Of a stretch of DNA of 36,998 nt, positions 15,268-19,285 are shown one piece after another. The stretch covers positions 1-36,998 of the forward strand of contig JAKARZ010000019.1 of assembly GCA_021828405.1 (NCBI GenBank), given 5' to 3'. Numbering within the stretch: the first letter of the stretch is position 1; every line of letters begins with the position of its first letter. Both the position numbers and the translations under genes were made by a program. Source of the stretch: Bacillota bacterium. GTDB taxonomy: Bacteria > Bacillota_E > Sulfobacillia > Sulfobacillales > JAIMBI01. A model generated the notes under the pieces. The model was not told where the DNA came from. It saw only the letters and a program-made list of their open reading frames with translations, and did not search any database.

Positions 15268-16398
15268 CTACACCATCTGCCTCAGCGGCAACACGATGTG
15301 AAAGTAGTTCGTGCCGTCCACCTCCGAAAGGCGCGCGGGCATTTCAGGGCCCGATAAATCGATGGTCATCGCCTCAGTCTCCAGCGACTTGATTCCTTCC
15401 AGCAACATGGTTGGGCTGAACGAGAGCTCCATCGCTTGACCCTCACCATCCACGTCCAGCATCTCGTACGCCTGTCCCACGTCCACGGCCTCGGACTGGA
15501 TCTCAAGCGTACCCGCGCTGTAGGTTAAGCGAATCGAGCCGGCACGGTCTCGGTGGGCAATCAGGTTGACCCGCTCCACCGCCCCCCGCAGTTGATCCGT
15601 GTTCACGCGGATGTGGGTCAAGTAGTGTTCGGGCAGAACCCGCTGGTAGTCCGGAAAGCGTCCTTCCAGGAGCAGGGTGGCCAACGTACCGCCCGGGGTC
15701 TGGATGACCATCTGATTGCCGGCCCGCTTAACGTGGACTGCCTCCACCCCAGCCAGTCGAGCCCCCTCAGCCAGCGCACGCTGGGACAGCACAAAGTCCA
15801 AGTCCGGTCCGCGATAGTCCGGCAGGGCGACCCAAGCGTGAGAGAGCCGGATACCGTCCGTCCCCACCATCACAAGTTTTCCGTCAGCCACATGCACGCT
15901 GGTGCCCTTTAAAATGGGGCGGCTTTCGTCGTGCGCCGTGGCAAACACGGTTTGCCGCGCGAGGCGCCCGAGAGCGCCCGGCGGCAGCTCGAACGTGGCC
16001 GCCTCTGCCTCCGGCCGCGGAAACTGCGGCATTTCCTGCACCGCGAATCCCTGCAACATCGTGCGATTCCGCCCATAGGCCACCGTGGCGCGGTGGGCCG
16101 CGGCGTCCGCCTCCACGCGCACTTCGGCCGTGGGCACACGCAACACCAAGTCCGTGAGGGGGCCGGCGGGCAAGATGAGGCCGCCGGGTTCAACCCCACT
16201 TGCCAGGACCTCCACGGTAATTTCCGATGTCAGGTCCGTCGACGCCAGGCGCACGGTCCCGTGGCCATCCGTCCCGCCACTGGCAAACACCTCGATATGA
16301 ACGCCGGTCAGCGCCGGCAGGGTGTTTTGGGGACTCACGATCCGAGTTACCTGCTGGAGGGCCCGAGCCAACTGAGCTTGATCCGCTACAAAGCGCAC
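15268..16398 (-). CDS. dnaN: DNA polymerase III beta subunit (sliding clamp)
   Basis: The 376-residue protein has the three-domain clamp fold, beginning MRFVADQAQLARALQQVTRI and ending with the typical LPLRQMV. SLETEAMTIDL near the end and the central VGTDGIRLSHAWV block are also clamp-like. GTG 16398 follows AGAGGAGTG at seven bases. The clamp tethers the replicative polymerase. It lies 305 bases after dnaA in the same direction; that spacer holds the repeat array described separately. Confidence 0.97.
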   Translation of the reverse strand: MRFVADQAQLARALQQVTRIVSPQNTLPALTGVHIEVFASGGTDGHGTVRLASTDLTSEITVEVLASGVEPGGLILPAGPLTDLVLRVPTAEVRVEADAAAHRATVAYGRNRTMLQGFAVQEMPQFPRPEAEAATFELPPGALGRLARQTVFATAHDESRPILKGTSVHVADGKLVMVGTDGIRLSHAWVALPDYRGPDLDFVLSQRALAEGARLAGVEAVHVKRAGNQMVIQTPGGTLATLLLEGRFPDYQRVLPEHYLTHIRVNTDQLRGAVERVNLIAHRDRAGSIRLTYSAGTLEIQSEAVDVGQAYEMLDVDGEGQAMELSFSPTMLLEGIKSLETEAMTIDLSGPEMPARLSEVDGTNYFHIVLPLRQMV

Positions 16399-16495
16399 GT
16401 TGTCACTCCTCTGGGGTTTTGAGCCTCGGGGGCCGGCCCGTTTGTCGTCTCCGATCCCTAGATAAAGATCTAAGCCTCGTCGTAGTCATAGAGCG

Positions 16496-16688
16496 TGTGG
16501 ATACCGGGACAAGTGGCTCGAATGGGTGCCACACGGGGATTGGAGGTCGGGACAACCAGTGGATGGCCATCTCCCGGCGCCGGGGCTCGCCGTGGACAAA
16601 GCGGCGAAACTCAGCTTCGCTGGGGACAACTTCGAACGTGTCCCCAGTTTCCTCCCGACTTGTCCCCCGCTCATCCCAAGCTTGTCCC
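16496..16688. repeat. GGGACAA/TTGTCCC array in the dnaA-dnaN spacer
   Basis: Five exact copies of GGGACAA or its complement lie at 16506, 16549, 16623 (plus orientation), 16660 and 16682 (minus orientation). Two one-mismatch copies are at 16593 (TGGACAA) and 16639 (GTGTCCC). Plus-oriented copies precede minus-oriented ones. Steps are 43, 44 and 30 bases, then 21 and 22, close to whole helical turns. TGTGGATAC at 16496-16504 is an 8/9 DnaA box, and CGTGGACAA matches the GC-rich box TTGTCCACA at 8/9. This may be the downstream half of a bipartite oriC; binding by DnaA is inference. Confidence 0.55.
16620..16647. repeat. Perfect 9-bp inverted repeat inside the array
   Basis: CTGGGGACA (16620-16628) and TGTCCCCAG (16639-16647) form a perfect stem around ACTTCGAACG, which contains the palindrome TTCGAA. 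It includes two of the array motifs. Neither side shows a T-run on the transcribed strand, so it is more likely a protein site or a cruciform than a terminator. Confidence 0.6.
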
Positions 16689-16703
16689 TCCCCAGCAAAC
16701 GGG

Positions 16704-18059
16704 TTATCGGCTCTTGACCCGTCTCTCTATTTCTTCTAAAACTTGAGCCAAATGAGGATCATGCGCCTGGTCTTGGGTTATTTTGTCGAACGCGTGCATG
16801 ACCGTCGTGTGGTCGCGCCCACCAAACTCGTCCCCGATTTTTGGCAGACTGGCATCCGTCAATTGTCGCGCCAGGTACATGGCCACCTGGCGGGGGAATG
16901 CGATGGCGCGCGTGCGACGCCGCGCCTTGAAGTCTTCCAGCTTGAGGTCGTAATGCCGGGCCACCTCTTCCTGAATGGCGCGAATCGTGACCGGCCGCGG
17001 GTGGTTCAGCGCCACCACGTTTTTGAGGGCTTCGTAGGCAAGCTCCAGCGTCAGCGGGGAGCGCTTGACCGACGCATAGGCGATGACGCGAATGAGCGCG
17101 CCCTCCAGCTCACGGATGTTGGTGTCCACCCGCGAAGCGATGAACTGGAGGACGTCGGCGGTGGCGGTGAGACCGTCCAGTTGCGCCTTCTTCGCCAGGA
17201 TCGCGACCCGGGTCTCCATGTCCGGCATCTGAATATCTGACAGCATCCCCCACTCGAATCGGGATCGCAGGCGATCCTCCAACGTGGGAATGTCTTTCGG
17301 CGGGCGATCGGAAGAAATAACGATCTGCTTGCGGGATCCGTGCAGCGCCTCGAACGTATGAAAAAATTCTTCCTGGGTGCGCTCCTTGCCGGCCACGAAC
17401 TGAATATCGTCGATGAGGAGCACATCGACGTCCCGGTACCGTTCGCGAAACTGCACCATGCGGTTGTCCTGAAGCGCGGTCACCATTTCGTTGGTGAAGG
17501 TTTCCGCCGACACGTACAGGACCCGCGCCGTGGCGCTGGCGGTCAGCACCCGATGGCCGATCGCATGCATCAGGTGGGTTTTTCCCAGGCCCACGCCTCC
17601 ATAGATAAAGAGGGGATTGTAGGCGCGGCCCGGCATGTCGGCCACCGCCACGCAGGTTGCCTGGGCAAACTGATTGGAGTTGCCGATGACAAACGAGTCG
17701 AAGGTGTACTTCGGGTTGAGTCGCCGAGCGTAGTCGCTGACCCGGGGCGGATCCGTCGGCTCTGCATGGCGCGGGGCCAGCAGCGGCGCGGGATCGCGAA
17801 CCATCCCTTCGGGCGGCGACGTCAGCCGGAGCCCGACCGGAACGCCCGCCACGTCCTGCAACGACGCACGAATCACGTTGCCATAGCGCGTCTCCACCCA
17901 ATGGCGCGTGAAGTCATTCGGCACGGTCAGCTCCAAGACCCCATCTTCGAATGAGAGAGGCTCCACCTCCTTGATCCAGGAGGCGAACGTTGGGGCTTTG
18001 ATCTCGCGTTGCAGCCGATCGGAAACCTCAGTCCACAATGTGTCCAGTGCCACGGTCAT
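16704..18059 (-). CDS. dnaA: Chromosomal replication initiator DnaA
   Basis: DnaA binds DnaA boxes and melts oriC. The 451-residue protein has domain I ([16 protein letters not shown]), an AAA+ core with Walker A near residue 156 ([15 protein letters not shown]) and Walker [12 protein letters not shown], and the domain IV signature [15 protein letters not shown] near the end. A GTG two codons upstream (18065) is also possible. ATG at 18059 has better spacing from AGGGGGG. Two perfect DnaA boxes lie about 45-65 bases upstream, so autoregulation is expected. The linker domain II is short (about residues 83-105), giving a protein near the usual length. Confidence 0.97.
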
Positions 18060-18065
18060 CTGCAC

Positions 18066-18260
18066 GAGCCCCCCTGGGGAAATTCACAATGAGCCCACCG
18101 CGTTATCCACAAGCTTATGCACAAAATGTTGATATCTGCCCGGAAAACACGGACCCTCCTCGCCACGTCGCGAGGACGCCCGAGAAGGTAGGGTCATGAT
18201 AGCAGATCACCCAGGGACTCGAAACGCTGTGTGCGCGATTTGACGAATGAGTTTTTAAGC
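18066..18260. other. Probable oriC (upstream part) with DnaA boxes
   Basis: TTATCCACA at 18103-18111 and TTATGCACA at 18115-18123 are both perfect TTATNCACA boxes in the same orientation, 12 bases apart. AAATTCACA at 18080-18088 is a 7/9 match. The stretch 18111-18160 is locally AT-richer (ACAAAATGTTGATATC) and could help unwinding. Position directly upstream of dnaA is the commonest oriC location in Firmicutes. The number of strong boxes is small, so the dnaA-dnaN spacer may supply further sites. Confidence 0.7.
18196..18224 (-). promoter_or_regulatory. Possible dnaA promoter
   Basis: On the minus strand TTTCGA (18219-18224) and TATCAT (18196-18201) are separated by exactly 17 bases. The -10 matches consensus at five of six positions. 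The -35 is poor. Transcription from here would run through both DnaA boxes into dnaA, which fits autoregulation. Confidence 0.35.
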
Positions 18261-18832
18261 CGCCGCCATGGCGCCTCTTAGGTTCAGACGGCCCAGAAAG
18301 GCAGGGCGGATGGCGGCAACGCCTTCATCTGCGCGAAAAGGGCCTCCCCGCTTCCTCAGCCGGCCGGCTATGCGCACCGCGAGATTCACGCGTCCCTCCC
18401 GGTCGAAGGCGGAGACGGCCGTCGAGAGCGGTCGCCTCTCCCAGCGTTCCCAGTGCACCAGACCATCTCGGCGCTCACGTGCGCCAGCGGGTGACGACCA
18501 CGCCGACAACGTTCGCGCGGGCCCGTGAATTGGCCTCGCCGATGTCGGTGTGTCCGAACCTCCGCTGCCGTCTGGAGTGCCCGGCCCCTCGCCTCGGCAG
18601 AGGCCGCCGTGGCCATCCGCCACGCATGGTGACGAATCCCTTGCAGCATCAGGCTGTCGGGGTCGTCGTTACCCACCGATCCATTCGTTTGTTGACGGGT
18701 TGGCTGTTGTGGCGGGGGGTTTAAGCCACGAGGGCGCCCTCCGGCCGATGAAGGAACGGTTTTCGTCCCTGCAGGCGTCCCGGTCCCGCCGGGTGTGTTT
18801 GCGTGACCCCGGGGTGCGCAACAGGCAACAGG
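18261..18832. other. No confident gene; possible remnant
   Basis: A minus-strand frame near 18676-18530 reads LMLQGIRHHAWRMATAASAE and another frame continues RANVVGVVVTRWRT before a stop. This has a protein-like look and may be the end of a degraded gene, perhaps a transposase, but I cannot assign it. Other frames look like chance. The rnpA-rpmH genes that often lie on this side of dnaA are absent. Confidence 0.4.
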
Positions 18833-19129
18833 TCAGCGCAACAGGCCTTCCAGCGCGTGGCGGACATCGTCTTCCGGCGGTTTGTCGCCCGGTATCGTGC
18901 CCAGCACCTGCTCGGCGACGGCACAGGCGCTCACGATGCGGCTCACCTTCTTCACCGCGCCTTCGGCCGCCGCCAGTTGCGTCAGCACATCGGCACACGA
19001 CGCGTTGCGGTCGACCATGGCCTCGATGCCCTTGATCTGGCCAGCCAGCAGCCGGAGGCGCCGGGTGACGTCTTCCTTGTCCCAGTACCAAGCGCGCTCC
19101 GCAATCGTGCGCGCCGTCTCCTCCACCAC
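18833..19129 (-). CDS. CsoR/FrmR-family metal- or sulfur-sensing repressor, atypical ligands
   Basis: The 98-residue protein has the all-helical CsoR-family core: TRRLRLLAGQIKGIEAMVD, then NASCADVLTQLAAAEGAVKK. Copper-sensing members use a Cys-His-Cys set. Here the first Cys is present (Cys45), but the His and second Cys positions are Ala70 and Gln74, and a Cys sits one residue before the His position (Cys69). It is therefore unlikely to be a normal Cu(I) sensor and might sense another metal, an electrophile or persulfide. I start at GTG 19129 because AGAGAGG lies six bases before it; a longer frame to ATG 19183 lacks a ribosome site. No metal transporter lies next to it, so its target is unknown. 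Confidence 0.85.
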   Translation of the reverse strand: MVEETARTIAERAWYWDKEDVTRRLRLLAGQIKGIEAMVDRNASCADVLTQLAAAEGAVKKVSRIVSACAVAEQVLGTIPGDKPPEDDVRHALEGLLR

Positions 19130-19285
19130 GAGCAACCTCTCTTCTCCCCCGGATGGGTTTTCCCCGCGTCTCGTACCCATCATACCGGATCAGCGTGTTT
19201 AATGGGGAAGGAACAGCGCTGGCCATGACCAATTGGACTAACCTTCGTCCCTTGGTTGTATGTTGGAGATGCGGGGAGGTGTGTC

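What the first reader, a model, noticed from the sequence alone, without database searches (positions are those of the whole stretch)
16496..16688. Helically phased, oppositely oriented GGGACAA/TTGTCCC array between dnaA and dnaN
Seven copies (five exact) occur in under 200 bases, four in one orientation followed by three in the other, with steps near 43, 44, 30, 21 and 22 bases. This is close to whole turns of DNA. One pair forms a perfect 9-bp inverted repeat with TTCGAA in its loop. The motif resembles the GC-rich DnaA box TTGTCCACA but is consistently CCC rather than CCA. It could be a lineage-specific DnaA site array, a second origin module, or the target of an unknown origin-binding protein.
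Basis: partly seen in the sequence, partly recalled or inferred. Interest (0 to 1): 0.75.

Follow-up and report, generated by a model that had tools for sequence, protein, structure and literature searches.

The report
Replication-origin array of DnaA boxes
The repeated motif between dnaA and dnaN is very probably the chromosome's replication origin, built from a cytosine-bearing version of the DnaA binding site and followed by unusual cytosine-centred unwinding triplets that match a recent biochemical prediction.

Summary
The GGGACAA/TTGTCCC array is the downstream (incC-like) half of a bipartite bacterial oriC. The window and three relatives (DnaN 83-90% identical) keep box order and spacing to the base (one step differs by 1 bp in the window), while the sequence between boxes has diverged. 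The array points outward in two arms and ends in a tandem box pair, a 4-nt gap, DnaA-trios and the weakest DNA of the spacer: a basal unwinding system (BUS).

(1) Spacer boxes carry C at position 7 (26 of 30 in the genus, 85 of 135 in 34 wider relatives), while boxes upstream of dnaA carry A (4 of 4; 39 of 52). C7 is the published mark of ATP-DnaA boxes. (2) The trios read 3'-[G/A][A/C]T-5'. C centres are fixed at three places in the genus and common in relatives; G or T centres are rare (4 of 160; 0 of 25). This is the base preference that B. subtilis experiments found. Most DnaA contact residues are unchanged, so a new origin-binding protein is not needed; the residue equivalent to L438 does vary.

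New variant of a known kind. DnaA binding, ATP gating and unwinding are inferred, not shown.

The parts
16682..16690 (+). C7 DnaA-type box TTGTCCCTC, outer end of the dnaA-side arm
   Evidence: same offset in L001, L002, L003 (TTATCCCCC in L003)
16671..16679 (+). weak box TCATCCCAA, 11 bp from both neighbours
   Evidence: same offset in L001, L002, L003
16660..16668 (+). C7 box TTGTCCCCC
   Evidence: same offset in the three relatives
16638..16646 (+). C7 box GTGTCCCCA, left member of the central outward pair
   Evidence: TTGTCCCCA in L001, L002, L003
16621..16629 (-). C7 box TTGTCCCCA, right member of the central outward pair
   Evidence: strict pair found once per genome in 4 of 4 related genomes
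16591..16599 (-). box TTGTCCACG (A at position 7), dnaN-side arm
   Evidence: TGGTCCACG in L001, CTGTCCACG in L003, TTGTCCCCG in L002, TTGTCCACG in L005
16547..16555 (-). C7 box TTGTCCCGA, dnaN-side arm
   Evidence: degenerate (TTGTCCGAG) in L002
16504..16512 (-). C7 box TTGTCCCGG, distal member of the tandem pair (box 6-like)
   Evidence: TTATCCCGG in L003
16496..16504 (-). box GTATCCACA, proximal member of the tandem pair (box 7-like)
   Evidence: GTATCAACA in L003
16492..16495 (.). 4-nt gap between proximal box and first trio
   Evidence: gap of 4 in 37 of 37 anchored spacers (of 39)
16477..16491 (+). five DnaA-trios on the + strand, 5'-TCG TCG TAG TCA TAG-3'; from the box outward the centres are A, C, A, C, C
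16458..16492 (.). weakest duplex of the spacer, likely unwinding element
   Evidence: nearest-neighbour profile, within the weakest 0.2% of the window
18103..18111 (+). canonical A7 DnaA box TTATCCACA upstream of dnaA
   Evidence: exact TTRTCCACA upstream in 4 of 4 genus and 32 of 34 wider relatives
18115..18123 (+). second upstream A7 box TTATGCACA
16704..18065 (-). dnaA
   Evidence: TIGR00362, 561 bits
15268..16398 (-). dnaN
   Evidence: TIGR00663, 201 bits

Best explanation
The array is the unwinding half of the chromosomal origin. Canonical A7 boxes upstream of dnaA hold DnaA in either nucleotide state. The C7 boxes of the dnaA-dnaN spacer are weaker sites filled cooperatively by ATP-DnaA. 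They form two outward-pointing arms on fixed spacing (an 11-bp ladder in the dnaA-side arm; 30, 43/44 and 43 bp in the other). The dnaN-side arm leads to a tandem box pair, from which an ATP-DnaA filament runs onto the DnaA-trios, captures bases of one strand and opens the weak DNA beside them. Trio centres may be A or C because DnaA (Asn187 in B. subtilis numbering) reads the amino group that both carry. Shown here by sequence: anatomy, conservation, the C7/A7 split, the A-or-C trio centres, kept trio-contact residues N187, R202 and E228. Inferred: DnaA binding, ATP dependence, order of filling, unwinding.
For: Fixed geometry over diverged sequence: box columns invariant 52 of 59 against 90 of 246 elsewhere. 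Tandem boxes, 4-nt gap and at least 3 trios with A/C centres in 4 of 5 genus and 31 of 34 wider relatives, shuffles at most 1. Position 7 A:C upstream 4:0 and 39:2, spacer 2:26 and 31:85. C7 as ATP-DnaA mark: PMC8235120 section 3.2. C can replace central A: PMC10721633 passages. Weak DNA beside the trios and the in-window minimum of cumulative GC skew over dnaA.
Against: No binding or replication data. ATP gating rests on analogy with E. coli, Caulobacter and H. pylori. The outgroup also has some C7 boxes (17 of 74 A+C upstream, 23 of 74 in the spacer), and 8 of 43 outgroup genomes show the same A-upstream/C-spacer pattern. C centres correlate with spacer GC (rho 0.60). The residue equivalent to L438, said to touch position 7, is L in 1 of 38 group sequences against 20 of 43 outgroup sequences. 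The proximal box of the genus is A7, not C7. L003 fails the trio search through one changed base in trio 2.
Confidence: 0.75

Rival explanations
1. The DnaA of this group has changed specificity, so that C7 boxes are its ordinary strong sites and not ATP-gated weak ones.
For: C7 is dominant in the spacer across 34 relatives. The L438 equivalent is M or I in 37 of 38 group sequences, L in 20 of 43 outgroup sequences.
Against: The same genomes keep TTRTCCACA upstream of dnaA (32 of 34 relatives, 4 of 4 genus). Within groups the residue does not predict C7 share: relatives M 20 A:53 C, I 11:30; outgroup I 22:11, L 24:9, M 5:3 in the spacer. The other listed contact residues are unchanged.
Confidence: 0.15
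2. The array is oriC, but C7 boxes and C-centred trios are mostly drift under high GC, tolerated by DnaA and without regulatory meaning.
For: Spearman 0.60 between spacer GC and number of C centres. C is tolerated at trio centres in B. subtilis (PMC10721633).
Against: Centres go to C but rarely to G (1 of 160 and 0 of 25), although GC pressure would allow both. C centres occur in spacers of 38-45% GC. Upstream boxes in the same genomes stay A7.
Confidence: 0.18
3. The central inverted pair is an RNA hairpin or terminator of the dnaA-dnaN transcript.
For: A 9-bp stem in the window and longer stems in L001 and L003 (sequences).
Against: No run of T follows. Over the 51 outward pairs examined, flanking bases pair in 50 of 204 positions against about 60 in shuffles, P 0.96; the four genus pairs alone give 7 of 16. 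Rfam finds nothing in the spacer.
Confidence: 0.03
4. An unknown origin-binding protein, not DnaA, reads the array.
For: The motif departs consistently from TTGTCCACA.
Against: In L003 two boxes read TTATCC, the usual A/G exchange of DnaA boxes. In most wider relatives the same place holds TTATCCC boxes abutting the trios.
Confidence: 0.04

Closest known systems
Bacillus subtilis incC and the basal unwinding system (PMC6669920, PMC8287927; passages only)
   Same: dnaA-dnaN spacer; several DnaA boxes; tandem boxes next to trios; distal boxes whose action depends on helical phase; canonical boxes also upstream of dnaA.
   Different: Boxes are mostly C7; trio centres are A or C, which the published search rule (.A.){3,} would miss in this genus; no DnaD-domain match over the cut-off in 38 of 38 group genomes.
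ATP-DnaA boxes of E. coli, Caulobacter (W-boxes) and H. pylori (PMC8235120 section 3.2)
   Same: Cytosine at position 7 of a DnaA-box core; H. pylori ts1 sits where B. subtilis box 6 and the window's TTGTCCCGG sit.
   Different: Here most of the spacer array is C7, and it is set apart from A7 boxes upstream of dnaA across 34 relatives; nucleotide dependence not tested.
E. coli oriC with two oppositely oriented arrays (PMC4285127, PMC6070618; passages; MG1655 sequence)
   Same: Outward-pointing arms (R1 left-pointing, R4 right-pointing); sites separated by 2 bp, i.e. an 11-bp step, in at least one arm; unwinding element outside one arm.
   Different: Location beside dnaA; only the dnaA-side arm has the 11-bp ladder; trios are clear here.

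Membership tests
Bacterial oriC | cluster of DnaA-box-like sites in an intergenic region beside dnaA, kept in relatives | tested here: met
Bacterial oriC | replication starts there in the cell | not testable with these tools
   only the in-window cumulative GC-skew minimum near dnaA supports it
Basal unwinding system (BUS) | tandem or single DnaA box followed, after a short spacer, by at least three trios | tested here: met
   with A/C centres 4 of 5 genus, 31 of 34 relatives; proximal box in the window has one mismatch to TTATCCACA
Basal unwinding system (BUS) | central A in every trio, as the published search rule has it | tested here: not met
   A-only rule finds 0 of 5 genus and 9 of 34 relatives; C is functionally accepted in B. 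subtilis (PMC10721633), so it works like a BUS with a wider alphabet
Basal unwinding system (BUS) | weak duplex beside the trios and DnaA-dependent opening | tested here: inconclusive
   weak duplex found; opening not testable here
ATP-DnaA boxes | C at position 7 | tested here: met
   26 of 30 genus and 85 of 135 relative TTRTCC sites in the spacer
ATP-DnaA boxes | bound by ATP-DnaA only | not testable with these tools
   needs footprinting
E. coli-type opposed arrays | two oppositely oriented arms of low-affinity sites 2 bp apart | tested here: inconclusive
   two outward arms: met; 11-bp ladder only in the dnaA-side arm; affinity unknown

The most novel reading that the evidence does not exclude
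A Bacillota group splits its origin by one base: nucleotide-independent A7 boxes upstream of dnaA, an ATP-DnaA-gated C7 array in the unwinding half. It opens DNA on cytosine-centred DnaA-trios, a natural use of the amino-group rule, possibly eased by the lack of DnaD and, in this genus, accompanied by I190V and I193L at the residues that flank the third trio base.
Probability: 0.4. Interest if true: 0.65.

Novelty: new variant of a known kind. Interest (0 to 1): 0.5.

Why it matters
It offers natural evidence, with repeated changes on a tree, for the claim so far made from B. subtilis mutants and modified bases that DnaA reads the amino group of the central trio base. It implies that origin searches requiring a central A will miss such origins. 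It also gives a system in which presumed nucleotide-gated and ungated DnaA boxes are kept on opposite sides of dnaA, which makes the gating idea directly testable.

Tried and rejected
DnaA specificity change through the L438 equivalent: the residue does differ between groups (L in 1 of 38 against 20 of 43), but within groups it does not track C7 share. RNA hairpin: no flank covariation over 51 pairs, no Rfam match in the spacer. Genome-wide enrichment of the single motif: weak, 1.3 to 2.6 times the reversed control in nine genomes. DnaD absence as the cause of C-centred trios: PF07261 over its cut-off in 0 of 38 group genomes (G006 and G035 give matches below it) and in 9 of 43 outgroup genomes; TIGR01446 in 0 of 13 group and 4 of 6 outgroup genomes. 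But DnaD-positive G053 (L076) reads by eye with C centres at some trios, and DnaD-negative outgroup loci such as L079, L085 and L098 show A centres only. I read only 7 of the 9 DnaD-positive spacers by eye, so the link is loose.

Literature: searches (TTATCCCCA with DnaA: 0 papers; 3 listed, none on the subject by title) found no report of this box. Of 8 papers listed for DnaA-trio with cytosine I saw passages of 6 and no report of natural C-centred trios; PMC5295017 and PMC6323995 were seen only as listings. Richardson 2016 (the first DnaA-trio paper) was not read. Searches gave listings, some of which led to the papers named here; one found none. The library lacks most subscription journals.

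Full report
Observation. The array is as described. Five exact copies in 200 bp were not approached in 300 simulations, whose maximum was 2. It fills most of the 305-bp spacer 16399-16703 between dnaA (16704-18065, -) and dnaN (15268-16398, -). Family models confirm dnaA, dnaN, recF and gyrB.

Close relatives. No genome is held for the window. DnaN found five loci in Bacillota MAGs. L001, L002 and L003 hold dnaA, spacer and dnaN. L005 starts inside the spacer at a contig end. L004 is a second dnaN-like gene in the same MAG as L003, without dnaA in its fetched upstream sequence. DnaA identity is 90-94% and DnaN 83-90%. Read from dnaA to dnaN, boxes in the window, L001, L002 and L003 lie at steps 11, 11, 22 (pointing to dnaA), 17 (turn), 30, 43 (44 in the window), 43, 8 (pointing to dnaN). 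Some are degenerate at a fixed place: the weak TCATCCC site in all four, the second site of the dnaN-side arm in L001 and L003, the third in L002. Columns under boxes are invariant in 52 of 59 positions against 90 of 246 elsewhere, Fisher P 2e-13. The strict central pair occurs at one place in each of four related genomes, reversed control 0. In three of them that place is this spacer. In G004 it is on another contig (C304), 1476 bases from a TTATCCACA, much as in G003 (1478), which suggests that the assembly breaks at the repeat.

Wider comparison. From the 101 genomes I made two sets by DnaN score; the labels are mine, since the tool tells no kinship. 'Wider relatives' are 34 loci from G005-G039 (G032 had no match). 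'Outgroup' is 43 loci out of 57 lower-scoring genomes with a match; 14 were not fetched. Upstream sequence was short or missing in L001 (134 bp), L069 (141), L070 (219), L103 (379), L086, L100 and L106 (none), and L005 (none). In the 34 relatives a relaxed box scan finds 262 sites against a shuffle mean of 37 (max 50). Pairs pointing to dnaA recur at 11 bp (14) and 22-23 bp (22), and outward pairs at 17-18 bp (36); shuffles give about 0. Site number varies; L071 has only three.

Position 7. For TTRTCC cores, A:C upstream and in the spacer is 4:0 and 2:26 (genus), 39:2 and 31:85 (relatives, Fisher P 2.6e-15), 57:17 and 51:23 (outgroup, P 0.35). Of the 34 relatives, 26 are A upstream and C in the spacer, 4 tie in the spacer, 2 are A in both, 1 ties upstream, 1 has no upstream box. 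Of the 43 outgroup genomes, 8 show the same split and 12 are A in both. Related genomes are not independent, so P values are a guide only. PMC8235120 section 3.2 (read whole) says that C at position 7 is shared by ATP-DnaA boxes of H. pylori, E. coli and Caulobacter, that it causes that behaviour in the latter two, and that D433 and L438 contact position 7. Nucleotide gating of the unwinding half is my inference from that.

Unwinding module. Anchored on the proximal box alone, 37 of 39 spacers (L064 and L068 gave no anchor) could be aligned with a 4-nt gap before the triplets. In trios 1-5 the last base (top strand) is A in 148 of 160 (relatives) and 24 of 25 (genus). The centre on the DnaA strand is G or T in only 4 of 160 and 0 of 25. 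C centres number 22, 15 and 26 of 32 at trios 3, 4 and 5 in relatives, and 5 of 5 at trios 2, 4 and 5 in the genus. Trio 1 is A-centred in 37 of 37. On a DnaA tree of 36 sequences the centres changed at least 18 times, a few of these to G or T. Requiring a box, a 4-nt gap and three trios, A/C centres give 4 of 5 (genus), 31 of 34 (relatives) and 11 of 43 (outgroup). A only gives 0, 9 and 5; A/G gives 0, 11 and 5; A/T gives 0, 9 and 8; shuffles at most 2. PMC10721633 (passages) reports that C, unlike G or T, supports strand separation at about the rate of A, that in vivo C works better than G or T, and that this raises the possibility of other sequences being read by other DnaAs. The pattern here fits. 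Against pure selection, C centres rise with spacer GC (rho 0.60).

DnaA. The closest solved relative is B. subtilis DnaA (8btg). Equivalents of P423, R432, D433, H434, T435 and H439 are unchanged in 38 of 38 group sequences; that of L438 is M in 4 of 4 genus, and M 19, I 14, L 1 in relatives. N187, R202 and E228 are kept in all 38. I190 and I193 are V and L in 4 of 4 genus sequences, I and I in 34 of 34 relatives; in the outgroup I190 is I in 43 of 43 and I193 in 41 of 43. This is one event in one lineage, so the link with C-rich trios is only suggestive. Residue numbers were matched by motif and by the alignment.

Context. The weakest stretch of the spacer is 16458-16492, beside the trios and within the weakest 0.2% of the window. 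An equally weak stretch lies at the upstream boxes near 18105-18138. Cumulative GC skew has its in-window minimum over 17001-19000. In E. coli MG1655, R1 points left and R4 right, i.e. outward (box names partly recalled), and low-affinity sites lie 2 bp apart (PMC6070618, passage). The window's plan resembles that arrangement seen in a mirror.

Verdict. In kind this is an ordinary bacterial origin. Less ordinary are the position-7 split across dnaA and the natural C-centred trios. Searches, with passages of the papers named, showed no report of either.

Noticed in passing
16466-16471 (AGATCT); same place in L001, L002, L003; AGATGT in L005; AGATCT also in L042 and L043: AGATCT lies just beyond the trios. 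PMC4285127 (passage) describes AGATCT as a single-strand DnaA site in the E. coli unwinding element. It may be chance.
   Followed up: no
L004 / L010 (G003): The MAG behind L003 holds a second dnaN-like gene, 79% identical to the window's, not beside dnaA in the fetched sequence: paralogue or mixed bin.
   Followed up: no
G001-G039: No DnaD-domain match over the Pfam cut-off in 38 of 38 genomes (two below it), though B. subtilis rings as control. How this group loads its helicase is open.
   Followed up: partly
18833-19183: A metal-sensitive repressor gene (PF02583) is a near neighbour upstream of dnaA; a simple motif scan found no L34 (rpmH) gene in the window.
   Followed up: no
17535-17603: Sub-threshold Rfam match to AsdA, antisense RNA of dnaA (28.6 bits, gathering 52). 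It lies inside dnaA and may only reflect coding conservation.
   Followed up: no
DnaA residues 195 and 198 of the window protein: I190V and I193L (B. subtilis numbering), at residues that flank the third trio base, are found in 4 of 4 genus sequences only as a pair.
   Followed up: partly
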